A stretch of DNA of 64,000 bases, from NCBI RefSeq assembly GCF_947489565.1, contig NZ_CANLEA010000002.1, forward strand, positions 124,001 to 188,000, given 5' to 3'. Position numbers and translations under genes: made by a program. Shown piece by piece: positions 1,281 to 17,332 of the stretch; the stretch's first letter is position 1; each line of letters opens with the position of its first letter. The stretch comes from an uncultured Kordia sp. GTDB taxonomy: Bacteria > Bacteroidota > Bacteroidia > Flavobacteriales > Flavobacteriaceae. The notes below the pieces were generated by a model. It was not told the DNA's origin and made no database searches. It worked only from the letters and a program-made list of their open reading frames with translations.

Positions 1281-2066
1281 TTAAATAGGATAATTAGCCG
1301 TCAAGACTTCAATCTTGCGTTTCCGCTTTTTCTCATGTGCGCCATTACTTGCAACAAGTGGTTTATCAACCATCATCGTATGCCAACCATACTTCTTACT
1401 ATATTCTTCAAGTATTTCAGAAGGGTATGAACTCAAAAGAAATTTTCCTTTGATGGCAGAAAGTGTGTCAAGAAGTTTGATAAAATCAGCTTTACTATAT
1501 CCATCATAATGTCCCATGTCAGCGTTGTAATACGGTGGATCAACATAATGGAATGCATCATCGGTATCATAGGTTTCAATCACTTTACACGCATCGTTAT
1601 TTTCAATTTGTGTATGCTCCAAGCGTTTGGAAATAGTTTCATCAAATCGAAGTTTCTTGTTCCGTACTGTTTTCAATCGCTTCCCATACTTATCAAATCC
1701 CCAACTTCCGATCTTGCACGCGAATCCCATATTCGTAGCGATATAGAATGCCCATGCTTGTTGTAATTTTTTAAACAAGTGTGGCATTCGATAGATCGTA
1801 TGTGCTACGGTATAAGTTGCACGTGAGAAGAGTGTAGCTTCTACTTTTGCTTTGAGATTATCAAAATCAGATTTACACACTTCGAAGAAGTTGATGACCA
1901 TATTATTGGTATCATTAATGATTTCTGATTGAGCAGGCTCTTTCGCAAAGAAAACGGCTCCACCACCGAAAAAACTTTCGGTATAAATAGTATGTTCGGG
2001 TATTAAAGGAAGTATTTTAGACAGCAACGTGATTTTGCCACCGTAATATGATATTGGGGTTTTCAT
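1281..2066 (-). CDS. D12-class adenine-N6 DNA methyltransferase
   Basis: A 261-residue protein of the Dam/D12 class, which transfers a methyl group from S-adenosylmethionine to adenine N6 in a short recognition site. The N-terminal SYYGGK (residues 6-11) and SFFGGGAVFF (31-40) form the SAM-binding motif and DPPYY (176-180) is the catalytic DPPY motif. The length fits a complete enzyme. No restriction endonuclease is adjacent, so it is probably an orphan methylase of the mobile element, used for protection against host restriction or for regulation. Neighbours are the RadC-like protein upstream and the coiled-coil protein downstream on the same strand. The recognition sequence cannot be predicted. 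Confidence 0.88.
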   Translation of the reverse strand: MKTPISYYGGKITLLSKILPLIPEHTIYTESFFGGGAVFFAKEPAQSEIINDTNNMVINFFEVCKSDFDNLKAKVEATLFSRATYTVAHTIYRMPHLFKKLQQAWAFYIATNMGFACKIGSWGFDKYGKRLKTVRNKKLRFDETISKRLEHTQIENNDACKVIETYDTDDAFHYVDPPYYNADMGHYDGYSKADFIKLLDTLSAIKGKFLLSSYPSEILEEYSKKYGWHTMMVDKPLVASNGAHEKKRKRKIEVLTANYPI

Positions 2067-2099
2067 AAAGGTTGATAGGGAAGGGCGAATAATAAGAGA

Positions 2100-2570
2100 C
2101 TACATCAAGTTCTCGTCAGCGAGTGACACATAATCTTCTGATGTGATAATGATATGATCTAAGACTTTGATATCCATGATTTCGCCAGCAGAACAGAGCT
2201 TTTTCGTAATTGCTTTGTCTGCACTTGAAACTTTAAGTGTTCCCGACGGATGATTGTGTGCAACAATTATTGCTGTTGCATTTACTAAAAGGGCTAATTG
2301 AAAGATATTCTTTTTATCTACAGTTACCGAGGTAACACCTCCTTTTGCAATTTCTGCAAAAGCAAGTACACGATTCGCATTGGTTAAATAGATCGCCCAA
2401 AAGTGTTCTTGAAGATCAAGTATATTTGTATCAATAACGGAGCGTAAATAATCACTAGCATCTTTTGATTTCTTGATGGTAAACATATTGTTAAACGCTT
2501 GCCGTTTATAGACAACTCCTACGATAGCACTACTAAGTACTACCGTAGATGGTAAACTGTTTGGTTTCAT
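2100..2570 (-). CDS. RadC-like JAB/JAMM domain protein
   Basis: A 156-residue protein with an intact JAMM metal-binding motif: HNHPSG at 105-110 followed by SSAD ending at Asp118. It belongs to the short RadC-like family that is very common on Bacteroidota mobile elements. It lacks the helix-hairpin-helix N-terminus of full-length RadC. The biochemical role of RadC proteins is unsettled; the old DNA-repair label is not well supported. It lies between the methylase and the VirD4-like ATPase in one minus-strand block. A degenerate relative is found at 14566. Confidence 0.85.
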   Translation of the reverse strand: MKPNSLPSTVVLSSAIVGVVYKRQAFNNMFTIKKSKDASDYLRSVIDTNILDLQEHFWAIYLTNANRVLAFAEIAKGGVTSVTVDKKNIFQLALLVNATAIIVAHNHPSGTLKVSSADKAITKKLCSAGEIMDIKVLDHIIITSEDYVSLADENLM

Positions 2571-2590
2571 ATATGGAATTGTTTTGTGGA

Positions 2591-3760
2591 TTACAAAATG
2601 GTGTCTGCACTAAAGGGAACTGATGGTTTACCGTCAATCATTAATCGCAGGTAAATAGAATAGTTAGCAAGGGAAGTGAAATCGGTAGTACTAAAGACAG
2701 GATAAAATTCTTTTGCCATTAAATTGGCATCAGTAATTCCTAGTCTAAAGCAAACTATTGTTCCAACATTTCCAAGCACACTATTACGTACTTCAATATT
2801 GAGTTGATGGAGAAATTGATTGGCAAGAATAAGTCCTATTTTGAATTTTCGGATTTGTGCGAGCATTTCTGCAATAAGTTCGGTACTCGATAGAATTTGA
2901 AACTCATCGATATACAGAAAATAGGGAACTCGTTGATGCTCTGGAATATCAATTCTAGAGAAGCAAGCAGATGCTAGGGAAGTCAGAAGTAATCCGCCAA
3001 GAATATTGGCAACATCGCTTCCAACGTGTCCTTTAGCCAGATTGATAATCAAAATTTGATTTGTATCTATGATTTTTCTGAGCGAAATCTGTTCATCATT
3101 TTCAACAAGAACTTTTTTGATGATTCGATGCGATAGTAATGCACCAATCTTATTCATGATTGGAAGCAGATCGTTTGGTTTGTATTTCGGAAATTCTTTT
3201 TCCCAAAACAGGAGAATCTCCTCTGATGTTATATGTTTAAGACATGAATTACGATATGACGTATCGTGTATGATTCTTAAAATATCTGATAGATTTGCTT
3301 TTGGCTGTTCGAGTAGAGAAAGTAAAATCATTCTTAGAATATGTTCCATTTTCATTCCCCAAGCGGATTTCCAATTGCGTTGGAATATTTCCAAAATATT
3401 AGAGGCAACAAGTGAACGTTTTGTAGCACTTACTTTCCTTAGCGGATTATATCCAAACAGAATTTCAGGATCAGTCACATCAAAATAGATGAGCTTTCTA
3501 TCTGGAAAACGATCTTGAATACTGGCTACAATTTCTGTGGACGCATCGCCATGTAAATCTAAGAATGCAAAACCACGATGTGCTTCTGCATCTTGTACCA
3601 TAAGTGTTTTTAGTAATGTCGTTTTTCCACTCCCACTTTTTCCAAAGCAGTAAAAATGTAACATTCTATCAGCTTGTCTGATGCCAAATAACTTTCCATC
3701 ACTTCTAAAATTAGTTCTTGCGAAATAGCTGACACTGTTCAGTTCATTGAAAAAAGACAT
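2591..3760 (-). CDS. VirD4/TraG-like DNA-translocation ATPase
   Basis: A 389-residue P-loop ATPase with Walker A GKSGSGKTT (40-48) and Walker B YFLYIDEFQ (about residue 275), followed by conserved AEMLAQIRKFKIGLILANQ typical of type IV coupling proteins and HerA-type translocases. Such proteins hand DNA to a conjugation channel. It is short, lacks an N-terminal membrane anchor, and no relaxase or other transfer genes are visible, so it may act with machinery encoded elsewhere or be a domesticated or mobilisation remnant. It is the first gene of the minus-strand block. Confidence 0.75.
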   Translation of the reverse strand: MSFFNELNSVSYFARTNFRSDGKLFGIRQADRMLHFYCFGKSGSGKTTLLKTLMVQDAEAHRGFAFLDLHGDASTEIVASIQDRFPDRKLIYFDVTDPEILFGYNPLRKVSATKRSLVASNILEIFQRNWKSAWGMKMEHILRMILLSLLEQPKANLSDILRIIHDTSYRNSCLKHITSEEILLFWEKEFPKYKPNDLLPIMNKIGALLSHRIIKKVLVENDEQISLRKIIDTNQILIINLAKGHVGSDVANILGGLLLTSLASACFSRIDIPEHQRVPYFLYIDEFQILSSTELIAEMLAQIRKFKIGLILANQFLHQLNIEVRNSVLGNVGTIVCFRLGITDANLMAKEFYPVFSTTDFTSLANYSIYLRLMIDGKPSVPFSADTIL

Positions 3761-4119
3761 GAATTTGAAAAGAAGAATGAGTAATATATTGAATTGTGTT
3801 TGTCAATTTTCATGGACAAAAAAAGGAACTACTTGCTTTTTTTAAATGCTATGGTAATTTTTAGAAATGCTTGAAGGGCTTTTTTGCGTGCTAACTTATA
3901 CCTATTATACCATATTTAGAATGCAGCAAAGTCCTCAGCGAAATTCTGTAGGGGGAGCATACAGTCCTTGCAAAAAAATCATTTATGAAATACACTATTA
4001 ACCGTAACTTAAATACAAAGAAACCTCGTTGCCCGAAAGGGTCGTTTAAACTTTTTTAGTTTGAACTAAAGCAACAGCGCGTGTTTATTTATATTCTCTA
4101 AATCATAATCGGTTTAGGT
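3761..4119. other. Intergenic region between ATPase and recombinase
   Basis: About 360 bases without a convincing ORF. It lies between divergent genes, so it should hold promoters for both, and it is the natural place to look for an attachment site or transfer origin. I see a weak TTAGTT-TG-AACTAA inverted repeat near 4056 but no unambiguous att core. Confidence 0.4.
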
Positions 4120-4164
4120 TATATAAAAGACCCGCTAGATTGCTTTTGGCGGGTCTTTTATATA
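4120..4164. repeat. 16-bp perfect inverted repeat ending at the integrase start codon
   Basis: The left arm TATATAAAAGACCCGC (4120-4135) and right arm (4149-4164) are perfectly complementary with a 13-base loop. The right arm ends at the A of the recombinase ATG, so the hairpin covers the translation start region. It may act as a terminator, a translation block or a recombinase-binding site. Confidence 0.75.
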
Positions 4165-5126
4165 TGAAGATTCAAAAATCAATAGAGATTCAAAATGCTA
4201 TCTATTCTTATCTTGAGTGGAAACAAACTCACACAAGTGCAGCTTATACCTGTTATAAAATTAGACTAGAGCAATTTGCAGAATTTATACAACCAAAAAC
4301 AAAACTCTCCGAAGTCAATGGAGATGACATTATTGCTTTTCATCGCAGTTTAGAAAATCATTACAGCTTAAACACCATTGCTTATTCCGCAAGAGTATTA
4401 AAAAACTTTTTCTGGTTTTGGCATGGTAGAGGATTTACAGCTTTCAATCCTAAAGAAATTATTCCAATACGATTTGTGAGTGCCGATAAAGATATTGTAA
4501 CTCGTGAAGACTTAGAAGATATGAATAGTTTATTAGAATTAAATAATTTACCTGATTTACAAAAGAAGCTTGTATTGCATTTACTATGGGATACAGGAAT
4601 GAGATTGAGCGAATTATTGGATATTAAAATTTCGGACATTAACAAACAGGGAAGCGATGGACTTCGAACGGCTAAAGTTCGGACAAGAAAAAGTATGCGC
4701 TATAACTTAGTAATTTGGGGAGCAGATACCAATGAACTTATCAACCGATATTTAGGAATTCGCTTGTGTATGGAAACCGATCATCAAAATTTACTGATCA
4801 ATCCAAAAACTAAAAAATCTTTTACCCCTAGAAGCATTCAACGTTGGATTACTGAACTGTCAGACATGGCAATGCTTGATAAAACAATCACACCACATAG
4901 TTTTAGACATGGAAAAGCAAACTACATACTCGATCAAGGTGGAAGCGTAAGAGATGTTAGCGCATTGCTTCGCCATGTAAAACCTGAATCTAGTTTTCAA
5001 TACATGCAACTCTCACAAAAACGATATGAAGATGTGGCTAGGAAATACCTCAATACGTTTAAAAACACATCGGAAATATCAACTTATTTTGAATCTGATA
5101 ATCAACTGAAATTTCAGTTTTCATAA
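4164..5126 (+). CDS. Tyrosine recombinase / integrase
   Basis: A 320-residue XerC/XerD-like recombinase that cuts and rejoins DNA through a covalent Tyr intermediate. Residues 1 to about 90 form a SAM-like core-binding domain. Catalytic residues are visible: Arg147 (DTGMRLSELL), His245 and Arg248 (HSFRHG), His271 (LLRHVK) and Tyr280. I chose the ATG at 4164; an upstream in-frame TTG at 4140 lies in the hairpin loop and is less likely. It is the probable integration enzyme of the element. It sits in the middle of the accessory block rather than at an edge, so the element may be circular-permuted relative to this view or composite. Confidence 0.88.
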   Translation: MKIQKSIEIQNAIYSYLEWKQTHTSAAYTCYKIRLEQFAEFIQPKTKLSEVNGDDIIAFHRSLENHYSLNTIAYSARVLKNFFWFWHGRGFTAFNPKEIIPIRFVSADKDIVTREDLEDMNSLLELNNLPDLQKKLVLHLLWDTGMRLSELLDIKISDINKQGSDGLRTAKVRTRKSMRYNLVIWGADTNELINRYLGIRLCMETDHQNLLINPKTKKSFTPRSIQRWITELSDMAMLDKTITPHSFRHGKANYILDQGGSVRDVSALLRHVKPESSFQYMQLSQKRYEDVARKYLNTFKNTSEISTYFESDNQLKFQFS

Positions 5127-5422
5127 AAACAATCTTCACGATTGTTTTTTACTTGAACTTAGTTTATAATTAGGCTCAGTACTTTCAACTATGAATACAA
5201 TACTTGCTTGATAAATGTTTTTACAAAGATTAATACTTTGTATTTAAGTTACATCTGTTATGTACTCGGTATTAGTTGACTCTCCACACAAGGGCACATA
5301 GCCCTTTAAAAAATAAAGATTTAACGTCGTAAAATACCGTTTATGCGACAGCCGTTTTGAATAGAAAAGTACTGTATGGGTTTATTCCCTAAGGTTGAGA
5401 GTACGTTAAAATTTAATTTAAA
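5127..5422. other. Intergenic region after the integrase
   Basis: About 300 bases with no coding frame. It contains a weak hairpin AAGGGC/GCCCTT at 5290-5306 without a T-run. It probably holds the promoter for the next two genes. No clear attachment site is seen. Confidence 0.4.
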
Positions 5423-5629
5423 ATGTCAAAATTTTATAATGTAGTCGTTAAAAAGGTAATTCCTAATAGCGCAGAAAAAGCTATTTATCACAAGGTAGGA
5501 ACAGTAAAAATCACCAAAAACGGTGGTTGGTTTTTACAAATGTATCATCAGCCTCATACGGAGTTTATGATTTTCCCAAATCATAATGAAACCTTACCAG
5601 TGATTGAATTTACCGATCATGAAGCTTAA
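5423..5629 (+). CDS. Small hypothetical protein upstream of the Rep-like gene
   Basis: A 68-residue soluble protein (MSKFYNVVVKKVIPNSAEKA...) with alternating hydrophobic residues suggesting a small beta-rich fold. Its last 11 bases overlap the ATG of the replication-like gene, so the two are probably translationally coupled. I do not recognise the family; position suggests a role in replication or copy control of the element. Confidence 0.55.
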   Translation: MSKFYNVVVKKVIPNSAEKAIYHKVGTVKITKNGGWFLQMYHQPHTEFMIFPNHNETLPVIEFTDHEA

Positions 5630-6131
5630 CAATACTACCGCAGTTCCGAATGTGTTTTTCGATTTGCAAATGAGTCAGTTAAGTGGTTCTGCTATTCGTG
5701 TGTATTTAAAAATAGTTCGTAATACGATTGGTTGGCGTGATCCAAGTGGACGTATCAAAGGGCGTGATTGGATTGCACATTCTCAGTTTGAAAAAGTTGG
5801 ACTATCCAATCGTAGCGTTACAAGCGCTATTGAAGAACTCCTTCAAAAACAACTCATTACCGTTACTGACTATATCGGCAATTCACTGAACAACCCTACA
5901 GAGCGTAAAAAATCAAAAAGAGTCTACTACTCCATTGTAGTGGATAACGTTGAAAAAATTGCGTTTCAGACCGAAAAAAATGACCAAAACAAACCGCAAG
6001 AATTGCGGACTACAAAAGAAACTTTTTTACAAAATTACAACGCAGAAAATGCAAACCCAGACCAAAGAAGAATTAAAGAAATACTAGAGCAAGAACAGCG
6101 TAAACAAATTCAAAGAGATAGCTGGGTATAA
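5619..6131 (+). CDS. Phage O-like / plasmid replication initiator (winged helix)
   Basis: A protein of about 170 residues. Its N-terminus (AVPNVFFDLQM...LSGSAIRVYLKIVRNTIGWRD...SVTSAIEELLQKQLI) has the pattern of the bacteriophage replication protein O N-terminal domain, a winged helix that binds the origin and recruits host replication proteins. The C-terminal 40 residues are charged and helical. I chose the ATG at 5619, which overlaps the preceding stop by 11 bases; the frame extends to 5604. With the integrase it suggests an element able to replicate after excision. Confidence 0.65.
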   Translation: MKLNNTTAVPNVFFDLQMSQLSGSAIRVYLKIVRNTIGWRDPSGRIKGRDWIAHSQFEKVGLSNRSVTSAIEELLQKQLITVTDYIGNSLNNPTERKKSKRVYYSIVVDNVEKIAFQTEKNDQNKPQELRTTKETFLQNYNAENANPDQRRIKEILEQEQRKQIQRDSWV

Positions 6132-6228: not shown

Positions 6229-8109
6229 TTATATATCTCTATAAATTGGACTTATATATTTCCAATCTCTTAGATATTTTAATTTACACAATATGTTTAA
6301 GTGATATGGATTCTCTGGTACATTTATTTTATCAGGCACAAGAGTTACTATCATTTGATCCAGATCCAACTCATTAATATTCTTTAAATAGTTGAATCCA
6401 AAAACTTTTTTAATGTCTATTTTTGACAACTTATAATACTTCTCTAAATTATAGATAGATTCAGGAATTATTTTGTTACTTGAAATTAATTTCTCTAATG
6501 ATTCTATACAATTATCTACAAATATATTTTCCTCTTGCTTTGTTTTTCTTTTCTGATTAATTAAATTATTAAAAATAGATATGAAATTAAACCCTAAGTT
6601 TGGATCAATTGAAAAGTCTGGGTTTTCTAATCTAATCCTGTTTAAAAAACTTTCTAAAAAATCTGCATCAAAGTTCTCTTTCTTTGCAATATTCAAAATC
6701 AATTCAAAATAATCATTAGCCTCTGTTGAAAGAGCTACAAGTATAGCTAGTTCATTAGGTATCTTTTTAAGAGAAATATGATCATTAGTAATAACTGGTA
6801 CTCCTTTTAGATACTCTGCGGTAAAATATTCTTGAATTGATTTATGTGCAAACTCATATTTATCCCTTCCTGATTTAATAAACAAGCCATTATGACTTTC
6901 TAATTCTTGTATTACTATGTCTCCTTCTTCCCTTGGCAAATTAAACCTGAGACATAAATCTAGATATGTTGAGCGAATTGTTGTAGATGAAAAGGAAGAA
7001 GAATAGTATTTCCTTGTTAAATAAAACGAAAGTTTACACAAAAATGATTTTTTCCTAGAGGGTAAAAATTTACTATATTTTGATTTCCTCTCAATATTTC
7101 TTTCGGTGTCCCACTCAAGTATAAGTAAGTCAACCACTTTACTGTATATTAAATTAGGAGTATCTGGAATGTGTTTAGGTAGCGATTTATCAAAAATTAT
7201 AAGTAAATGACTTAATGTCAATGGTCTACGTGCTGTATCTAAATATGTTGACAGAAATAGTTGACTTAGAAATATCTTACTTTCATCTTCATCTCTTAAC
7301 CAAGAATGTGTAAACTCTTTTATTTGCTCATCATCAAGTTCTGAAATTTCAAATTTTTTAGAATTAGTAACCGTATAGGGAAACTCTACAGTTCTTGAAG
7401 TGAGAATAAATCTAGTATTTTTTAATTTTCTAGATAAACTTTCGATCTCATTTACAATTTTATCCTTATCAGAGTATGGGTACTCATCAAAACCATCAAG
7501 TATAAGTAAGGCTTCTAGAGTATCTAACGCTTCAGCTATTTTATTTTCAAGTATATAATTATTCCTTTCGTTAAAATTTTCAGCTCCATTAAAACCTAGT
7601 ATTTTGTATAATTTTTCATAGATACCCTCCGTTTTTTTGAGAAAATTATCTCCATATAATTTAAGTTCTCTAAATCTAATAACTATTGGAATGCTAAATT
7701 TATGTGGACAAAACTTTTCATCAGTCATTAACTTAAAAGCGATATACTTAATTGATGTCGTTTTTCCTGCTCCTGGTTGCCCCAATATTATAATATTCTT
7801 ATCTGTTTCATTTAAGTGATCTTTGAATAATATTTTTAATGGAGATTCAGAATGTCCTTCCATTTGTTCCCTTCTAGGAGTCAAATAGTAATTTAAATGT
7901 ACATAAGAGTTTTCAATTTTTTTTGATGATTCAATTGTATTAATATTGATTTCTCTTGACCACTTTGTAGTCTCTTCCACATGTATATTTAATGATTTTA
8001 AAAGACTTTTTCTTGTAAACTTAACTTTAATATTTTCTTCTGAAAATGCTTTCGCCACTTTCTTATAAATTTCGTCTAAGGCTTTGGTTATAAAGTATTC
8101 TTTTAACAT
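6229..8109 (-). CDS. NACHT-domain STAND NTPase (bNACHT-like, probable defence)
   Basis: A 626-residue protein. A short N-terminal region of about 100 residues precedes a NACHT NTPase: Walker A GQPGAGKTT (110-118), Walker B LLILDGFDEYP (201-211) with the extra acidic residue typical of NACHT, and sensor FILTSR (234-239). The remaining 350 residues are helical, including ...YEFAHKSIQEYFTAEYL, a conserved NACHT-associated helical motif. Bacterial NACHT proteins are known anti-phage sensors related to animal NLRs. No recognisable N-terminal effector (nuclease, TIR, protease) is seen, so the executing domain is unclear. It is transcribed away from the three-gene operon starting at 8343, separated by 233 bases. 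Confidence 0.8.
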   Translation of the reverse strand: MLKEYFITKALDEIYKKVAKAFSEENIKVKFTRKSLLKSLNIHVEETTKWSREININTIESSKKIENSYVHLNYYLTPRREQMEGHSESPLKILFKDHLNETDKNIIILGQPGAGKTTSIKYIAFKLMTDEKFCPHKFSIPIVIRFRELKLYGDNFLKKTEGIYEKLYKILGFNGAENFNERNNYILENKIAEALDTLEALLILDGFDEYPYSDKDKIVNEIESLSRKLKNTRFILTSRTVEFPYTVTNSKKFEISELDDEQIKEFTHSWLRDEDESKIFLSQLFLSTYLDTARRPLTLSHLLIIFDKSLPKHIPDTPNLIYSKVVDLLILEWDTERNIERKSKYSKFLPSRKKSFLCKLSFYLTRKYYSSSFSSTTIRSTYLDLCLRFNLPREEGDIVIQELESHNGLFIKSGRDKYEFAHKSIQEYFTAEYLKGVPVITNDHISLKKIPNELAILVALSTEANDYFELILNIAKKENFDADFLESFLNRIRLENPDFSIDPNLGFNFISIFNNLINQKRKTKQEENIFVDNCIESLEKLISSNKIIPESIYNLEKYYKLSKIDIKKVFGFNYLKNINELDLDQMIVTLVPDKINVPENPYHLNILCKLKYLRDWKYISPIYRDI

Positions 8110-8342: not shown

Positions 8343-9371
8343 ATGAATATTTTATTTTCTTCATTACATCATGTTGACAATTCAAATAGCTCTGTAAGAT
8401 CAATCAGTATAACTTTAAGTAGTACACTTATAGATTATACCAATAAACTATTCAAACAAATAAATGAAAGTGAAAATAAAAAGATATATACTTTCAAAAG
8501 TGATAAAACTGAAGTTAGACAGGTTATTGAAAATGTTATTAACAATAAAGAGAGAAATGACTCTGTCGAATTGAGTGCTAGTAGATTACTTGAAAAAGAA
8601 ACCAAAGCACAAGAATGGATGGATAGTAGAAAAATGAAAGTAAAGATTCTTAAGGGTAGTTTATTTCAAACCCTGATAGAGATTGATGGTGAAAAAAAGG
8701 TGATAATTTGTAAAGCAGATCATAATCAATACTTAGATGAAAACTCTTTGTCATTAAGAAGTGGCTTACCTTGGGACAAGAAAATATTTAAAGCCGCATT
8801 AATTCATATTAATAATGATAATAGCATATTTGAGGAAGTCGATATATTAGATGTTAATCATTCTAAATATTGGTATGATGATTTTCTTGAGTTAAGAGAA
8901 AAGCACAATAGCAGCTATAATACTCAACAATCAATGAACAAGATAGATATTAGAGTTTTTAATAATATCAAAAAAAAATATCCATCTGATTATTGGATTC
9001 TGAGAAACAGTTTTATTGGCTTTTTTAGATCAAAATCTAATTTCGAGATAGAAGATTTCATATCAACACTCTTAGATGATTACTACCCAGTTGATATTGA
9101 ATTCCCAAAAGATTCAATTGTAAATAAAATAAGAGCTTTACCTAAACAATTTGATTTTGATAGCTCTTTTTCAATTTCTAAAAAAGATATAAAGAAAAGA
9201 GCTTCTAGAAAAGTCAAAATAGCAGAGAATATTGATTTACACTTGAAAAACCATATTAAAAACTTTAAAGGAATTATACATTCTGGTAAAACAGATAGTG
9301 GTCAAATGTTTATTCAGGTTTTTACTGAGGAAGAATCCGTTTATGAACAATTCAAAAGAAGAGCAGATTGA
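8343..9371 (+). CDS. NdpA-like (nucleoid-associated) protein, first gene of candidate defence operon
   Basis: A 342-residue soluble protein. The order of features resembles the NdpA/YejK family: an early helix-rich region, a central sheet (GSLFQTLIEIDGEKKVIICKADH), the LDVNHSKYW segment comparable to LDINHAD in YejK, and a C-terminal part (FSISKKDIKKRA...IHSGKTDSGQMFIQVF...EQFKRRAD) comparable to the YejK end with its final Q-x-x-RR. YejK binds nucleoid DNA. The resemblance is by eye and remote. Its stop overlaps the start of the next gene by 4 bases (TTGA), so the two are co-translated. It may mark or recognise DNA for the helicase-nuclease two genes downstream. Confidence 0.6.
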   Translation: MNILFSSLHHVDNSNSSVRSISITLSSTLIDYTNKLFKQINESENKKIYTFKSDKTEVRQVIENVINNKERNDSVELSASRLLEKETKAQEWMDSRKMKVKILKGSLFQTLIEIDGEKKVIICKADHNQYLDENSLSLRSGLPWDKKIFKAALIHINNDNSIFEEVDILDVNHSKYWYDDFLELREKHNSSYNTQQSMNKIDIRVFNNIKKKYPSDYWILRNSFIGFFRSKSNFEIEDFISTLLDDYYPVDIEFPKDSIVNKIRALPKQFDFDSSFSISKKDIKKRASRKVKIAENIDLHLKNHIKNFKGIIHSGKTDSGQMFIQVFTEEESVYEQFKRRAD

Positions 9372-10807
9372 AAAATATTGTCAATATAATAAATGATTTT
9401 TTTTCAGATCAAGCAGAAAATATTGAAATAGTAGAGAGGTTTGAAAAATTTATTATAAAAGGAATTTTAAAATCTAATAAACCCATTTTAGAAGAAAATG
9501 AAAAATGTCTTCTAAATTATCTTATTCCAAAAAATGATCGATGGGTGTTAATGATTTTCTTAAATGATGAAGATCCTTTGTTTGAAACTCATAATGAAAT
9601 CTCTGATGACTTCAAATTTCATTATAAAGATGTGTACCCAATTGAAGATGATAAATTAGCTTTTAAATTAATTATACAAAAAGAAAATAATAATGGTAAT
9701 TACAATATCTATAGCCTAAAACATTTTGAAAGCTGGTTAAATAATTTATCATCAATATCTTTTTTAAAAGTAATTAACCCAATTATAAAGAAAAATTTAT
9801 TTGTCAATTTTATTTTTTTAGAAAGGTCTGACATAACTATTATTTCAGAGAGAGTTAGAGTTAATGACTCCATATTTAAACGTCAAAAATTGTCGAATAA
9901 TTGGGAATATTTTCATTTTGATAATAATAAAGATTACCCATATAGAGGGAATGATTTTATAAGTATTCAAAAAAACACTAAAGATTTTCCTCCCTTAACT
10001 TCAAAACTGATAAATCTAAGCAATCTATTTTCTATAACCAGTCTATTTGATGTTACATACATAGATAATGATGAATTAGTTTTTCAGTTACATGGATTTA
10101 AGCATCTAAAAGGGAGTGTGAAAATTGGCACCTTAGATGAAACATATTCTTTGTATACAAAGATCAATAATTGGATATACTCAACCAATAGTAATATTTC
10201 AGATAAAATAGGATTAGCAAGAAATATTATTTCTCTTTATAAAAGAGATAATTCTCTTGAAATTGATGATAATGTCTATGAGTCTATACTTTCTGGTTAT
10301 AAAATTTATTTAAAAGATAATATATCTAAATATATTGAAATCAGAACTAAGCTAAGTGATGATATTAATAAAATTTTGTTAGAGACAAGAGAGTCTCTCA
10401 ATGAACTCTCATCCAATTATCAAAAAAGCAACTTTTTATATATTTCATTTTTTATGTCAGTATTTATATTACGTATGTTAAATAAAAATGATTTTCAAAA
10501 TATTTTCACGAAAGATGCCACTGTCATGTTTCTATCTTTACTCGCAATCTCCTTTATATACCTTATATATTCTATTTGGTTAGTTTTTTCTAAAAGAAAT
10601 AGAATTGAAAAAAGATATGAGTTGTTAAAAACAAAGAATACTGATTTATTAACCAAAACAGATATTTCAAAAATCTTAAATAATGATAGTGAATTTAATG
10701 ATGAACTTAAATATACTGACATTAGAATAGTTGTATTTATAATCTTATGGATAGTAACCATGATAGTTTTTTATATAGCTGTCTCACAATTATCTAACTA
10801 TATATAA
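9368..10807 (+). CDS. Unknown protein with C-terminal membrane anchor, second gene of candidate defence operon
   Basis: A 479-residue protein read from a TTG start that overlaps the upstream stop (TTGA); no ATG occurs until about residue 62. Residues 1 to about 345 look soluble and mixed alpha/beta, with a predicted helical coil (about 315-350, ISKYIEIRTKLSDDINKILLETRESL). Three hydrophobic segments follow at about 353-371, 384-406 and 454-474, with a charged coil between the second and third. I recognise no family. The layout (cytosolic sensor-like head, membrane anchor) is common among defence effectors that disturb the membrane, which is inference only. It is AT-rich like its operon partners. 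Confidence 0.65.
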   Translation: MKNIVNIINDFFSDQAENIEIVERFEKFIIKGILKSNKPILEENEKCLLNYLIPKNDRWVLMIFLNDEDPLFETHNEISDDFKFHYKDVYPIEDDKLAFKLIIQKENNNGNYNIYSLKHFESWLNNLSSISFLKVINPIIKKNLFVNFIFLERSDITIISERVRVNDSIFKRQKLSNNWEYFHFDNNKDYPYRGNDFISIQKNTKDFPPLTSKLINLSNLFSITSLFDVTYIDNDELVFQLHGFKHLKGSVKIGTLDETYSLYTKINNWIYSTNSNISDKIGLARNIISLYKRDNSLEIDDNVYESILSGYKIYLKDNISKYIEIRTKLSDDINKILLETRESLNELSSNYQKSNFLYISFFMSVFILRMLNKNDFQNIFTKDATVMFLSLLAISFIYLIYSIWLVFSKRNRIEKRYELLKTKNTDLLTKTDISKILNNDSEFNDELKYTDIRIVVFIILWIVTMIVFYIAVSQLSNYI

Positions 10808-10867
10808 TAAGATAAAGATGCTCTTTTATTTACAATAACTATTAAATTTTTTAATACTATAAATTAC

Positions 10868-13417
10868 ATGATCAATTTTCAAAAACGAATAAAAAAGTCT
10901 AAAAAACCTAAAGAATTACATCCAGTAAAAATTTATGATACTCTTGATCGCGCCAGTGATAAAGGTCCTCTGAGACCCTCTCAACTTGAAGTATTAAATA
11001 AATGGAATGATACATACAAAAGTTTAGGGGATTGCGTAATCAAATTACATACTGGTCAAGGAAAAACTATAATTGGATTATTAATACTTCAATCAAAATT
11101 AAATGAGGTTAATGAACCTTCATTATATATCTGTCCCAATATATATCTTGTAAAACAAACATGTGCTCAAGCAAAACAATTTGGTGTTGAATATTGTGTA
11201 ATTGAACCCGATGGAAATATTCCTGATGACTTCATTAATGCTAAAAAAATATTAATAACACATACTCAAAAAGTATTTAATGGATTAACTAAATTTGGAT
11301 TTAAAGGAAAAGCTATACCCGTTGGAACTATAGTTTTAGATGATTCTCACTCCTGTATTGATAGTATTGAAGATAGCTTCACAATAAAAATAAAATCTGA
11401 AACTCCTGTATATGATAAAATTTTTGCATTATTTGAAGCTAATTTAGAAGATCAAGGTTATGCGAAATTACAAGAAGTTAAAGAGGGAAGTAGTGAAAAC
11501 GTTATCAGTGTTCCCTATTGGGTTTGGAATGAAAGATATACAGACGTTACAGAGATTTTAGTAAGTCACAAAAATGATCTAGATCAAAATGGTAGTAATA
11601 TGTATTATTACTTCTTTCCGTGGCGACTAATTAAAGATCAGATAGAAAATTGCTATTGTACTTTTACAGGATCAAGTTTAGAAATTAAACCTTATCATAA
11701 TCCAATAGAAAAATATGGTAGTTTTTTTAATGCAAAGCATCGAGTTTTTATGTCAGCCACTACTAATAATGATTCTTTTTTTATAAAAGGATTAAGTCTA
11801 GCTAAAGAAACTATTGAAAATCCATTAGTCTATAATGATAAACTTTGGTCTGGTGAAAAAATGATTCTTTCACCATATAAAATAGATAGTGATCTAAGTA
11901 GATTTGGTATTGTTAATTTTTTTGCTCCTTCTGATGAAAAAAGAAAATATGGGATTGTTGTATTGACATCTGGATTTAAAAAGAGCAATTATTGGGAAGA
12001 ATTGGGTTCTATAAAAATAAATACACATAATATTTTTGACGAAATAGGTAAACTTAAAAATGGAAATTATGAAAATACTTTAGTTATTGCAAATAGATAT
12101 GATGGAATTGACCTGCCTGATAATAGTTGCAGAGTTTTAATTATTGATTCAAAACCTTATGCAGAAAATCTATATGAGAGATACCAAGAAGATGTGCGAA
12201 TGGATAGTGATCTAATAGATATCAAAATTGCTCAAAAGATTGAACAAGGATTAGGTCGCGGTGTAAGAGGTGAAAAAGATTATTGTGTAATTATTTTAAC
12301 TGGTAATGATATTATTCGTGTTATTTCAGATCCAAGATATAAACGGTTTTTCTCTGAAGAAACAAAAAAGCAAATTGATATTGGAACTCAAGTTACTAAA
12401 TTTGCAGTTGAAGATGCTGATTCTGCCGATTCATTAAAAGTTTTACAAAAAGTAATAGATCAATGTTTAGAACGAAATGATGGATGGAAAGAATACTACA
12501 AAAGTGAAATGAATGAAATAAAACCTCGAATAAAAGTTGATAACATTTTAGATATTCTAGAGAAAGAGAGGAGAGCTGAAGAAAAATATAGTCAAGGTGA
12601 ATACGAAGAAGCTGTAAAAGAAATCCAGTTCATACTAGACAACTATATTGACCCTTCTAATAGAACTGAAAGAGGGTGGTATTTACAACAAATGGCTAGA
12701 TTCAAATACAATATTAGTGTCTCTAAATCGAATAAATTTCAAATACAAGCTCATAAGAATAATAAGTACTTGTATAAACCGAGCCAAGGAATGGATTTCA
12801 AGAGGTTAGAAATACATGAAAATAGGGTGCAAAAAATAATTGAATGGATTAAAAAATATGAAAATTATGAAGAATTATCAATTAGTCTTAATACTATTTT
12901 AAATGATATTTCTTTCGGTGTTAAAGCTGATACATTTGAACATGCATTAGAGCAACTTGGTAAGATTCTAGGGTTTAATAGTGAACGCCCAGAAAAATAT
13001 TGGAAAGAAGGACCTGATAATTTATGGTGTATAGAACATGGTAAATACATTCTTTTTGAATGCAAAAATGATGTAAAAGAAAATCGTGCAGAAATATACA
13101 AAAAAGAGACTGGGCAAATGAACAACTCACAAGTATGGTTTAGAAGAAAATATGAAGAATCTGAATGTTTATCAGTGATGATAATCAACACTAGAATGGT
13201 TTCTAATGATGCATCTCTTGATCCAGAAACAGTTGTTATGAGAAAATCAAAATTAAAGTTTTTGAAAAAAAATATTGAAAAGTTTTTTAAAGAATTTATT
13301 AATTCAAATTTAGAAAGCATTGATCATACTAATGTATCAATACTGCTAGAGCAACATAAATTATCTAATAAACACTTGTTTGAAGAATATTATCAAAAGG
13401 TTTTGCATAAAAACTAG
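10868..13417 (+). CDS. DinG/XPD-like SF2 helicase fused to a PD-(D/E)XK nuclease
   Basis: An 849-residue two-part enzyme. Helicase motifs are visible in order: RPSQLEVLNKW (Q-motif-like, 36-46), HTGQGKT (I, 61-67), LDDSH (II, 157-161), FMSATT (III), RYDGIDLPDN...IIDSKPY (V region, like DinG) and QGLGRGVRG (VI). A helical linker follows (about 550-690). The C-terminal domain has GPDNLW (Asp717) and LFECKND (Glu731, Lys733), the D...ExK signature of PD-(D/E)XK nucleases. The protein should unwind and cut DNA. The gap of 60 bases to the preceding gene and a strong terminator after it make it the last gene of the operon. A C-terminal nuclease on a DinG-like helicase is unusual and supports a defence role. 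Confidence 0.82.
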   Translation: MINFQKRIKKSKKPKELHPVKIYDTLDRASDKGPLRPSQLEVLNKWNDTYKSLGDCVIKLHTGQGKTIIGLLILQSKLNEVNEPSLYICPNIYLVKQTCAQAKQFGVEYCVIEPDGNIPDDFINAKKILITHTQKVFNGLTKFGFKGKAIPVGTIVLDDSHSCIDSIEDSFTIKIKSETPVYDKIFALFEANLEDQGYAKLQEVKEGSSENVISVPYWVWNERYTDVTEILVSHKNDLDQNGSNMYYYFFPWRLIKDQIENCYCTFTGSSLEIKPYHNPIEKYGSFFNAKHRVFMSATTNNDSFFIKGLSLAKETIENPLVYNDKLWSGEKMILSPYKIDSDLSRFGIVNFFAPSDEKRKYGIVVLTSGFKKSNYWEELGSIKINTHNIFDEIGKLKNGNYENTLVIANRYDGIDLPDNSCRVLIIDSKPYAENLYERYQEDVRMDSDLIDIKIAQKIEQGLGRGVRGEKDYCVIILTGNDIIRVISDPRYKRFFSEETKKQIDIGTQVTKFAVEDADSADSLKVLQKVIDQCLERNDGWKEYYKSEMNEIKPRIKVDNILDILEKERRAEEKYSQGEYEEAVKEIQFILDNYIDPSNRTERGWYLQQMARFKYNISVSKSNKFQIQAHKNNKYLYKPSQGMDFKRLEIHENRVQKIIEWIKKYENYEELSISLNTILNDISFGVKADTFEHALEQLGKILGFNSERPEKYWKEGPDNLWCIEHGKYILFECKNDVKENRAEIYKKETGQMNNSQVWFRRKYEESECLSVMIINTRMVSNDASLDPETVVMRKSKLKFLKKNIEKFFKEFINSNLESIDHTNVSILLEQHKLSNKHLFEEYYQKVLHKN

Positions 13418-13426
13418 TATGAATTA

Positions 13427-13460
13427 GGAGAGCAAATACAATCAATATTTGCTCTCCTTT
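13427..13460 (+). terminator. Terminator of the candidate defence operon
   Basis: A perfect 12-bp stem, GGAGAGCAAATA (13427-13438) with TATTTGCTCTCC (13446-13457), 7-base loop, then TTT. It separates the operon from the convergent ssb gene. Confidence 0.85.
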
Positions 13461-13481: not shown

Positions 13482-13814
13482 CTATCTCCCCAACATCAAA
13501 ATCTCATTCACCAATACCTCAGTCACATATTTAGTTTCTCCATCTTCAGTTTCATAAGATCGGTTTGTTAGTTTTCCTTCAATAGCAATTTCTTTTCCTT
13601 TCAATAAATACTTCTCTACAATTTCTGCTGTTTTGTTCCAGGCAATCAACGAATGCCAGTAGGTGTTTTCAATCTTATCTCCCTGTGCATTTTTGTATGT
13701 TTCGTTTGTTGCAATAGAAAATTTTGCAATCTTTTTACCATCTTCTAAATTGATAATTTCTGGGTCATTTCCTAAATTTCCGATTAACTGTACTTTGTTT
13801 CTTAATGTGTTCAT
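13482..13814 (-). CDS. ssb: Single-stranded DNA-binding protein
   Basis: A 110-residue OB-fold SSB: MNTLRNKVQLIGNLGNDPEI, KFSIATNETY, NTYWHSLIAWNKTAE and KGKEIAIEGKL are the usual core blocks. It ends after the core (EILMLGR) without the acidic C-terminal tail that housekeeping SSBs use to recruit partners, which is typical of plasmid- and ICE-borne copies. It probably protects single-stranded intermediates of the mobile element. A truncated second copy lies just upstream at 14046-14258. Confidence 0.9.
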   Translation of the reverse strand: MNTLRNKVQLIGNLGNDPEIINLEDGKKIAKFSIATNETYKNAQGDKIENTYWHSLIAWNKTAEIVEKYLLKGKEIAIEGKLTNRSYETEDGETKYVTEVLVNEILMLGR

Positions 13815-16390: not shown

Positions 16391-17332
16391 ATGAATTTCA
16401 AATCATTACCACAGTTACTAGACTATTTCCGAGAAGAAAAAACGTGTATTGAGTACTACGAAAAAATTCGATGGAACGGCAAGCCAGTGTGTCCGCATTG
16501 CGATAGTGAGAAAGTATACAAGACAAATAGAGGGTACAGATGTGCAAATAAAGAATGTCAAAAGAAATTCACGGTAAAAGTTGGTACTATCTTTGAAAAC
16601 TCTAAATTACCTTTTAGAATTTGGTTTGCGGCTATCTACTTGGCAACCACACACAAAAAAGGTATCAGCTCTGTACAATTAGCAATTGATTTAGGAATTA
16701 CACAGAAAACAGCTTGGTTTGTATTACACCGCATCCGCGAAATGCTAAAAGATAAATCTCCGCAAATGTTAGGCGAAAACAATATGGTAGAAGTTGACGA
16801 AGCGTATATCGGTGGTAAGGAAAAGAATAAACATATTAGTAAAAGACGATCTTTAGAGGATAAAAACGTTACAAACGAGGGTAAACCATATAAAGAGAAG
16901 AAAATAATAGTAGGACTTATTGAGCGTAACGGAAACGTAGTTTTAAAACACGTTCCGAAAGCAGATGCAAATAATATGGTAGCATTTATAAATAAACACG
17001 TTCCCGCAGGTTCTACGGTTTATTCAGATGAAGCAAAGGTTTATAGTAAATTGCATAAAACCTATACACACGACAACGTTAAGCATTCACTTAATATTTA
17101 TGTTGATGGAAATGTACACACCAACACGATAGAAAACTTTTGGAGTGTTTTAAAGCGCGGTTTATACGGAATCTATCACCAAGTAAGTGATAAACACGTA
17201 AGCCGTTATTTAGATGAATACGCGGCACGTTTCAATACGAGAACATTATCAAGTCAAGAAAGATTCGATAAGTTTCTAGTAGATAGCGAAAGTGTGTTGA
17301 CTTATAATGAATTGACACAGGCAGACTTGTAA
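16391..17332 (+). CDS. IS1595-family (ISXO2-like) transposase
   Basis: A 313-residue complete transposase. The N-terminus carries a zinc ribbon (Cys34, Cys37, Cys51, Cys56: CPHC...CANKEC) followed by a helix-turn-helix (SSVQLAIDLGITQKTAWFVLHRIREML). The C-terminal half is the ISXO2-like DDE domain, with EVDEAYIGG, VYSDEAKVY and NTIENFWSVLKRGLYGIYH supplying the catalytic acidic positions. It sits in the middle of the 3.9-kb transposon bounded at 14364 and 18274 and is presumably the enzyme that moves it. No frameshift is seen, so the element may still be active. Confidence 0.92.
   Translation: MNFKSLPQLLDYFREEKTCIEYYEKIRWNGKPVCPHCDSEKVYKTNRGYRCANKECQKKFTVKVGTIFENSKLPFRIWFAAIYLATTHKKGISSVQLAIDLGITQKTAWFVLHRIREMLKDKSPQMLGENNMVEVDEAYIGGKEKNKHISKRRSLEDKNVTNEGKPYKEKKIIVGLIERNGNVVLKHVPKADANNMVAFINKHVPAGSTVYSDEAKVYSKLHKTYTHDNVKHSLNIYVDGNVHTNTIENFWSVLKRGLYGIYHQVSDKHVSRYLDEYAARFNTRTLSSQERFDKFLVDSESVLTYNELTQADL

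What the first reader, a model, noticed from the sequence alone, without database searches (positions are those of the whole stretch)
8343..13417. Three-gene operon: NdpA-like protein, membrane-anchored unknown, DinG-like helicase with PD-(D/E)XK nuclease
The genes are tightly coupled (4-base overlap, then 60 bases, then a strong terminator), AT-rich, and lie beside a NACHT gene inside accessory DNA. The helicase has a DinG/XPD-like core and a C-terminal D717...E731-x-K733 nuclease site; the first gene shows a by-eye match to nucleoid protein YejK/NdpA; the second has a soluble head and three C-terminal membrane helices. I know of no named defence system with this set. Proposal: DNA-binding sensor, helicase-nuclease effector and membrane component acting against phage or plasmid DNA.
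Basis: partly seen in the sequence, partly recalled or inferred. Interest (0 to 1): 0.88.

Follow-up and report, generated by a model that had tools for sequence, protein, structure and literature searches.

The report
Hna beside a YejK-membrane gene pair
The three neighbouring genes are not one new system: the third is a known single-gene anti-phage protein called Hna, and the first two form a separate, widely scattered and so far unnamed gene pair that probably also defends bacteria against phages.

Summary
The three genes exist as described, but they are two modules. Gene 3 (10868-13417) is an ortholog of Hna, a published single-gene abortive-infection helicase-nuclease: 1e-231 full-length match to the solved Hna structure and 1016.7 bits to PADLOC PDC-S28.

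Genes 1 and 2 are an independent pair. A scan for gene 1 gave 16 other loci (Bacteroidota, Verrucomicrobia, Campylobacterota, two proteobacterial classes): gene 2 is in 16 of 16, Hna in 0 of 16, and the pair is in 0 of 5 other Hna loci examined. Their distances correlate at r = 0.968. Gene 1 is a divergent YejK/NA37 protein (Foldseek 9.6e-7, hhalign 96.6%), not KwaB (0.3%). Gene 2 is an unnamed C-terminal membrane protein. Beside the pair, 6 of 11 loci partly annotated have restriction-modification or other defence-type genes, two of them type I S and R genes on either side.

Best reading: a candidate two-gene defence system, YejK-like DNA binder plus membrane anchor, working somewhat like Kiwa, parked next to Hna in a mobile element. 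Function is inferred, not shown.

The parts
8343..9371 (+). Gene 1: divergent YejK/NdpA (NA37)-fold protein, 342 aa; first gene of the conserved pair
   Evidence: Foldseek of the AlphaFold2 model (pLDDT 84): only PDB hit with E<=0.001 is E. coli YejK 9be2, 9.6e-7; hhalign to NA37 proteins 96.6%, E 5.9e-10; to KwaB proteins 0.3%
9368..10807 (+). Gene 2: soluble N-terminal domain plus C-terminal membrane helices, 479 aa, TTG start overlapping the gene 1 stop by 4 bases; second gene of the pair
   Evidence: Homolog behind gene 1 in 16 of 16 other loci; no PADLOC or PDB match and no convincing Pfam match
10868..13417 (+). Gene 3: Hna (DinG-like SF2 helicase core plus C-terminal PD-(D/E)XK nuclease), 849 aa
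   Evidence: PDB 10UJ/9YKJ, phmmer 1e-231 over residues 1-845; PADLOC PDC-S28 1016.7 bits; the paper names 10UJ and 9YKJ as Hna
13426..13458 (.). 13-pair hairpin between Hna and the convergent SSB gene, possible bidirectional terminator
   Evidence: -19 kcal/mol, z -5.3; not listed by the consensus scan
6229..8109 (-). Divergent NACHT-domain NTPase gene, separate neighbour in the same island
   Evidence: Pfam NACHT 2e-12; NCBIfam antiphage_EruA 38.9 bits, far below its cut-off of 1000; found in 0 of 16 pair loci and 0 of 5 Hna loci

Best explanation
The stretch holds two neighbouring, independent anti-phage modules in mobile DNA of what is probably a Kordia genome. Module A (10868-13417) is Hna. 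Under ATP it is a nuclease-inhibited dimer; a phage SSB releases it, and its 3'-5' ssDNA exonuclease leads to abortive infection (published for the S. meliloti protein; inferred here from the full-length match and conserved residues). Module B (8343-10807) is an unnamed two-gene unit: a YejK-fold protein and a membrane protein with a large, probably cytosolic N-terminal domain. Most likely mechanism, inferred: the membrane protein holds the YejK-like protein at the inner membrane, where it binds entering or replicating phage DNA and blocks its use, as is described for KwaA and KwaB. Probabilities: Hna identity about 0.97; modules independent about 0.9; pair is a defence system about 0.65; this membrane-tethered DNA-binding mechanism about 0.35.
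For: Hna; R36, Q39, P716, D717, E731 and K733 are invariant in all 5 Hna-like proteins aligned, window included. Independence: gene 1 and gene 2 in 16 of 16 other loci, Hna in 0 of 16; pair in 0 of 5 other Hna loci. Kordia aestuariivivens (G005) has the pair at one place and Hna homologs at two others. Plasmids: 254 records match gene 3, 191 over at least 80% of it; none matches the window's gene 2 at E 0.01. Pair as a unit: junction of -8 to +5 bases in 13 loci, -4 in 7 of them; mirror-tree r = 0.968 over 14 loci, 0 of 5000 shuffles as high, and 0.961 in the 10 Bacteroidota loci left after dropping four. Fold of gene 1. Defence setting: HsdM-HsdS-[pair]-HsdR (Arcobacter), HsdS-[pair]-one unannotated ORF-HsdR (Sulfurimonas), Eco57I/TaqI_C methylase gene whose ORF overlaps that of gene 1 (F. 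branchiophilum), C5 methylase + MvaI/BcnI endonuclease (Bacteroidales), deaminase and YhcG nuclease (F. cheongpyeongense), Eco57I/SNF2 protein and HipA_C (Flagellimonas). A YejK-domain unit has been validated as anti-phage in E. coli (PMC13092281).
Against: No phage data for the pair. In 4 of the 11 loci partly annotated (L030, L032, L034, L040) no defence gene was seen, one (L033) is ambiguous; neighbours were chosen by me, 1-4 per locus, and no baseline for random loci was measured. The profile search of PDB sequences did not list YejK, and Pfam gave chance-level families for some members (CBF_beta in 3 of 15, best 7.8e-4). The YejK fold match has TM-score 0.45 and rmsd 12.2. Gene 1 homologs vary in pI from 4.9 to 9.1 (7 measured), so DNA binding by net charge is not a conserved trait. 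Topology is weak evidence: the TM2-TM3 loop holds 6-11 K/R against 0-1 in the much shorter TM1-TM2 loop, but also 9-12 D/E (14 sequences). The same strand and 60-base gap leave co-transcription with Hna possible. Gene 2 has no recognisable fold.
Confidence: 0.72

Rival explanations
1. The three genes form one three-part system in this genome: YejK-like sensor, membrane part and Hna effector acting together.
For: Same strand, 4-base overlap then a 60-base gap, one hairpin after gene 3; shared low G+C.
Against: Hna in 0 of 16 other pair loci; pair in 0 of 5 other Hna loci; Hna works alone in published work; two Hna homologs and the pair lie on three separate contigs in Kordia aestuariivivens.
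Confidence: 0.07
2. The pair is an abortive-infection system: the YejK-like protein senses phage DNA or a phage protein and gene 2 is the effector that damages the membrane.
For: Gene 2 has C-terminal membrane helices (two or three by hydropathy in 16 of 16 homologs) right after a conserved segment (K316, N318, Y322 invariant in 16 of 16 aligned); membrane effectors paired with a sensor are a common Abi design (recalled).
Against: The N-terminal part of gene 2 is as large as an independent domain and has no known effector fold; membrane-bound DNA-acting systems are known (Kiwa, SNIPE).
Confidence: 0.25
3. The pair is a nucleoid-membrane tether with a housekeeping or mobile-element role (partition, supercoiling), carried in islands by hitchhiking.
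For: Gene 1 belongs with YejK, a nucleoid-associated protein; the surroundings in the window hold SSB, RadC and integrase genes; 4 of 11 loci showed no defence neighbour.
Against: Patchy: gene 2 homolog in 2 of 149 relatives, one being the window genome itself, and in 0 of 394 other genomes drawn from the phylum; set between type I S and R genes in two Campylobacterota; the window genome keeps a separate ordinary NA37 protein.
Confidence: 0.2

Closest known systems
Hna (helicase-nuclease abortive infection; PADLOC PDC-S28; PDB 10UJ, 9YKJ)
   Same: Gene 3: full length, same domain order, all published catalytic and ATP-site residues, dimer-loop D31 and P34 kept
   Different: Residue 30 is S instead of T; lies beside the pair; trigger untested here
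YejK/NdpA (Pfam NA37, PF04245; PDB 9be2)
   Same: Gene 1: same fold by Foldseek and hhalign; shared D-x-N...KYW...FL...T stretch
   Different: Not found by Pfam NA37 in 14 of 15 members; followed by gene 2 in 16 of 16 loci found; patchy; the window genome has a separate NA37 protein
Kiwa (KwaA + KwaB)
   Same: Two genes, one membrane protein and one soluble, proposed DNA-binding protein
   Different: Gene order reversed; gene 1 is not detectably KwaB (0.3%); gene 2 is about 480 aa with a large soluble domain, while the gene before KwaB in the 10 loci aligned here has 185-280 aa in nine and 144 aa in one
YejK-domain system among the DefensePredictor validated units (Science 2026, PMC13092281)
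   Same: YejK domain in an anti-phage unit
   Different: Its gene content is in a figure and supplementary tables that I could not read; may or may not be the same pair
Hachiman (HamA + HamB)
   Same: Helicase plus nuclease logic of gene 3
   Different: Hna carries both in one chain; genes 1-3 gave no Pfam match to DUF1837/HamA

Membership tests
Hna | Full-length homology to the characterised S. meliloti protein | tested here: met
   phmmer 1e-231, query 1-845 to chain 1-841
Hna | PD-(D/E)XK residues P712, D713, E727, K729 | tested here: met
   Align with P716, D717, E731, K733 (residues); invariant in 5 of 5
Hna | ATP-site residues R36 and Q39 | tested here: met
   R36 and Q39, same numbers; invariant in 5 of 5
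Hna | Dimer loop T30, D31, P34 | tested here: inconclusive
   D31 and P34 kept, T30 is S in the window protein; none of the three is invariant among the 5 aligned
Hna | Works as a single gene, triggered by phage SSB | not testable with these tools
   Bench test needed; published for S. meliloti
YejK/NA37 | NA37 profile over Pfam cut-off | tested here: not met
   P0001 has no Pfam hit; 1 of 15 members matches at 1.2e-7
YejK/NA37 | YejK fold and profile-level homology | tested here: met
   Foldseek 9.6e-7, hhalign 96.6% against 6 NA37 proteins; a profile search of PDB sequences did not list YejK
YejK/NA37 | DNA binding | not testable with these tools
   no assay
Kiwa | KwaB domain (PF16162) | tested here: not met
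   No PF16162 hit in gene 1; hhalign 0.3% against 10 KwaB proteins
Kiwa | KwaA-type membrane partner | tested here: not met
   Gene 2 is a membrane protein in the same operon but longer, behind and not in front of gene 1, and compared with KwaA only by size and order
Hachiman | HamA (DUF1837) beside HamB helicase | tested here: not met
   No DUF1837 hit in genes 1-3

The most novel reading that the evidence does not exclude
Genes 1 and 2 are a new two-gene anti-phage system in which a repurposed YejK-type nucleoid protein is held at the membrane by an unrelated membrane protein and arrests incoming phage DNA: a second, independent invention of the Kiwa principle, sometimes built into type I restriction operons. 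In Kordia it may have been placed in front of Hna so that DNA stalled by the pair feeds the Hna exonuclease.
Probability: 0.25. Interest if true: 0.72.

Novelty: new variant of a known kind. Interest (0 to 1): 0.5.

Why it matters
It removes one false lead (the trio) and gives gene 3 a published mechanism. It leaves a sharper lead: a tightly co-evolving, cross-phylum pair that the PADLOC 2.0 models miss, that would link a housekeeping nucleoid protein fold to membrane-based defence, and that is small enough to clone and test in one experiment.

Tried and rejected
Trio as one system: rejected. KwaB/DUF4868 for gene 1: rejected by profile comparison with 10 KwaB proteins. DUF1837/HamA: no hit. 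CD28- or Hsp90-like fold for gene 2: best E 0.067, not significant; no viral fold match with E<=0.001. PADLOC for the gene 1 family: one Cas2 match at 0.019 in 15 members, taken as chance. Relatives of the pair in viral contigs, by a few short patterns, of gene 1 in phages and of the Photobacterium pair in E. coli genomes by DNA: none confirmed. A first scan of genome contigs with gene 3 alone also confirmed none. Own promoter for Hna: no TANNTTTG site in 10808-10867, but the motif is at chance level in the window, and a 9-of-12 sigma-70-like site lies at 10829-10858, such sites being near chance too; so this settles nothing. Literature on a YejK-plus-membrane pair: in searches (all hits listed), and in the listed part of searches (10 of 53; 20 of 174; 20 of 740), no title or start of abstract described such a pair; PMC13092281 is the one listed paper in which I saw YejK tied to defence. 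Papers seen: PMC13381803 (abstract, introduction, parts 1-2 of 3 of the results, discussion, one passage), PMC12445080 (passages), PMC13092281 (section 5 and passages), PMC12904381 (passages); all others only in listings. Sather 2023 was not read and is known through those papers.
Full report
What is there. The three ORFs, the 4-base overlap, the 60-base gap and a hairpin after gene 3 are as described; the hairpin lacks a T run. Gene 2 begins with TTG inside TTGA; in 7 of 13 other loci measured the junction is also a 4-base overlap, which supports that start. The window is contig C2:124001-188000 of a 6.42 Mb genome. A relative of the same genus, G005, has a contig of 385,295 bases with the pair, the same length and locus as Kordia aestuariivivens NZ_JACGWS010000004.1, so the host is probably a Kordia; this is an inference.

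Gene 3 is Hna. It matches PADLOC PDC-S28 at 1016.7 bits and PDB chain 10uj_A at 1e-231 from end to end. PMC13381803 states that 10UJ and 9YKJ are the Hna monomer and dimer. In that paper K729A abolishes and P712A/D713A/E727A lowers nuclease activity, R36A/Q39A abolishes ATPase activity and raises cleavage, and T30A/D31A/P34A breaks the inhibited dimer. On the printed alignment these are K733, P716/D717/E731, R36/Q39 and S30/D31/P34 of the window protein. Published Hna acts alone, is a 3'-5' ssDNA exonuclease with no unwinding detected, and is released by a phage SSB.

Genes 1 and 2 are a unit without Hna. First sign: in G005 the two lie together on C34 while Hna homologs lie on C15 and C42. 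Second: a 2.1-Mb plasmid record of Photobacterium sp. DA100 has both genes 5 bases apart. A scan of genome contigs with a three-row gene 1 alignment then gave 15 loci (one is the Kordia locus again), which with Photobacterium makes 16. By tblastn gene 1 is found in 16 of 16, gene 2 in 16 of 16, Hna in 0 of 16 and the NACHT gene in 0 of 16; the held DNA is 4.3-17 kb per locus, only 4.3 kb for L033 and L043. In 5 Hna loci (four in three relatives, one in Spirosoma) the pair is found in 0 of 5. The scan selected for gene 1, not for gene 2 or for absence of Hna. By record titles the loci are 11 Bacteroidota, one Verrucomicrobia, Sulfurimonas and Arcobacter (Campylobacterota), Ghiorsea (Zetaproteobacteria) and Photobacterium; ranks other than those of Photobacterium and Verrucomicrobia are recalled. 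Distances of the two proteins correlate at r = 0.968 over 14 loci, none of 5000 label shuffles reaching it, and at 0.961 after dropping the four loci outside Bacteroidota; shared species history contributes to such a correlation.

What gene 1 is. The AlphaFold2 model (pLDDT 84) has one PDB match with E<=0.001: E. coli YejK, 9.6e-7, probability 1.00, over 376 columns at 12% identity; the TM-score is only 0.45 and the rmsd 12.2, so the domains are probably placed differently. hhalign of 14 members against 6 NA37 proteins (three of them over 90% alike) gives 96.6% and 5.9e-10 over 301 columns; against 10 KwaB proteins 0.3%. One of 15 members reaches NA37 in Pfam. A profile search of PDB sequences did not list YejK; its best hit was adenylate kinase at 0.019. 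The window genome also has an NA37 protein elsewhere.

What gene 2 is. 446-514 aa in the intact members, C-terminal membrane helices, model pLDDT 74. No PADLOC match in 16 members, no convincing Pfam match, no solved or viral fold match with E<=0.001. The TM2-TM3 loop holds 6-11 K/R against 0-1 in the TM1-TM2 loop in 14 of 14 sequences, which suggests a cytosolic N-terminal domain that could meet gene 1; the longer loop holds 9-12 D/E as well, so this is weak.

Setting. I annotated 21 neighbours of the pair in 11 loci, 1-4 per locus and chosen by me, besides one transposase. Six loci have RM or other defence-type genes: L031, L035, L038, L039, L042, L044. L033 has an SMC/AAA ATPase (ambiguous). 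L030, L032, L034 and L040 show none. In L044 the order is HsdM-HsdS-gene 1-gene 2-HsdR; in L042 HsdS-gene 1-gene 2-one unannotated ORF-HsdR (for the order). In the window the pair sits between a NACHT gene and Hna.

Mechanism. Computed: co-occurrence, YejK fold by prediction, membrane helices by prediction. Inferred: DNA binding, membrane tethering and defence. I favour a membrane-held DNA-binding block as in Kiwa, described in PMC12904381, over a membrane-damaging effector, because the only recognisable domain is that of a nucleoid protein; the margin is small. The variable pI of gene 1 homologs (4.9-9.1 in 7 measured) is a mark against simple electrostatic DNA binding.

Known or new. Hna is known. 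A YejK domain has been validated in E. coli defence by DefensePredictor, but that unit's gene content is not in the text I could read, so I cannot say whether this pair is the same. My literature searches, several of them seen only as capped lists, showed no description of the pair.

Noticed in passing
window 13482-13814 (-): An SSB gene lies tail to tail with Hna, 64 bases away. Hna is triggered by phage SSB in the literature, so an element-borne SSB next to it is worth testing for an effect on Hna.
   Followed up: partly
window 6229-8109 (-): Divergent NACHT NTPase, weakly like antiphage EruA; possibly a third defence gene of the island.
   Followed up: partly
window 1281-6131 and 16391-17332: Mobile-element genes: D12 DNA methylase, RadC, type IV coupling-protein ATPase, tyrosine integrase, a protein weakly like Phage_rep_O (below cut-off), IS1595 transposase.
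   Followed up: partly
L041:7935-10062: Gene 1 of Dyadobacter luteus is split by an integrase-core transposase gene (8704-9690); gene 2 behind it is still open.
   Followed up: no
L042 and L044: The pair sits between the S and R genes of type I restriction loci in Sulfurimonas and Arcobacter MAGs.
   Followed up: partly
L024, L026 (G005:C15 and C42): Kordia aestuariivivens carries two Hna homologs, 45% and 30% identical to the window protein.
   Followed up: no
G000:C14:88685-88993 (L052): A sub-threshold KwaB-like match (17.1 bits, E 0.014) in the window's own genome.
   Followed up: no
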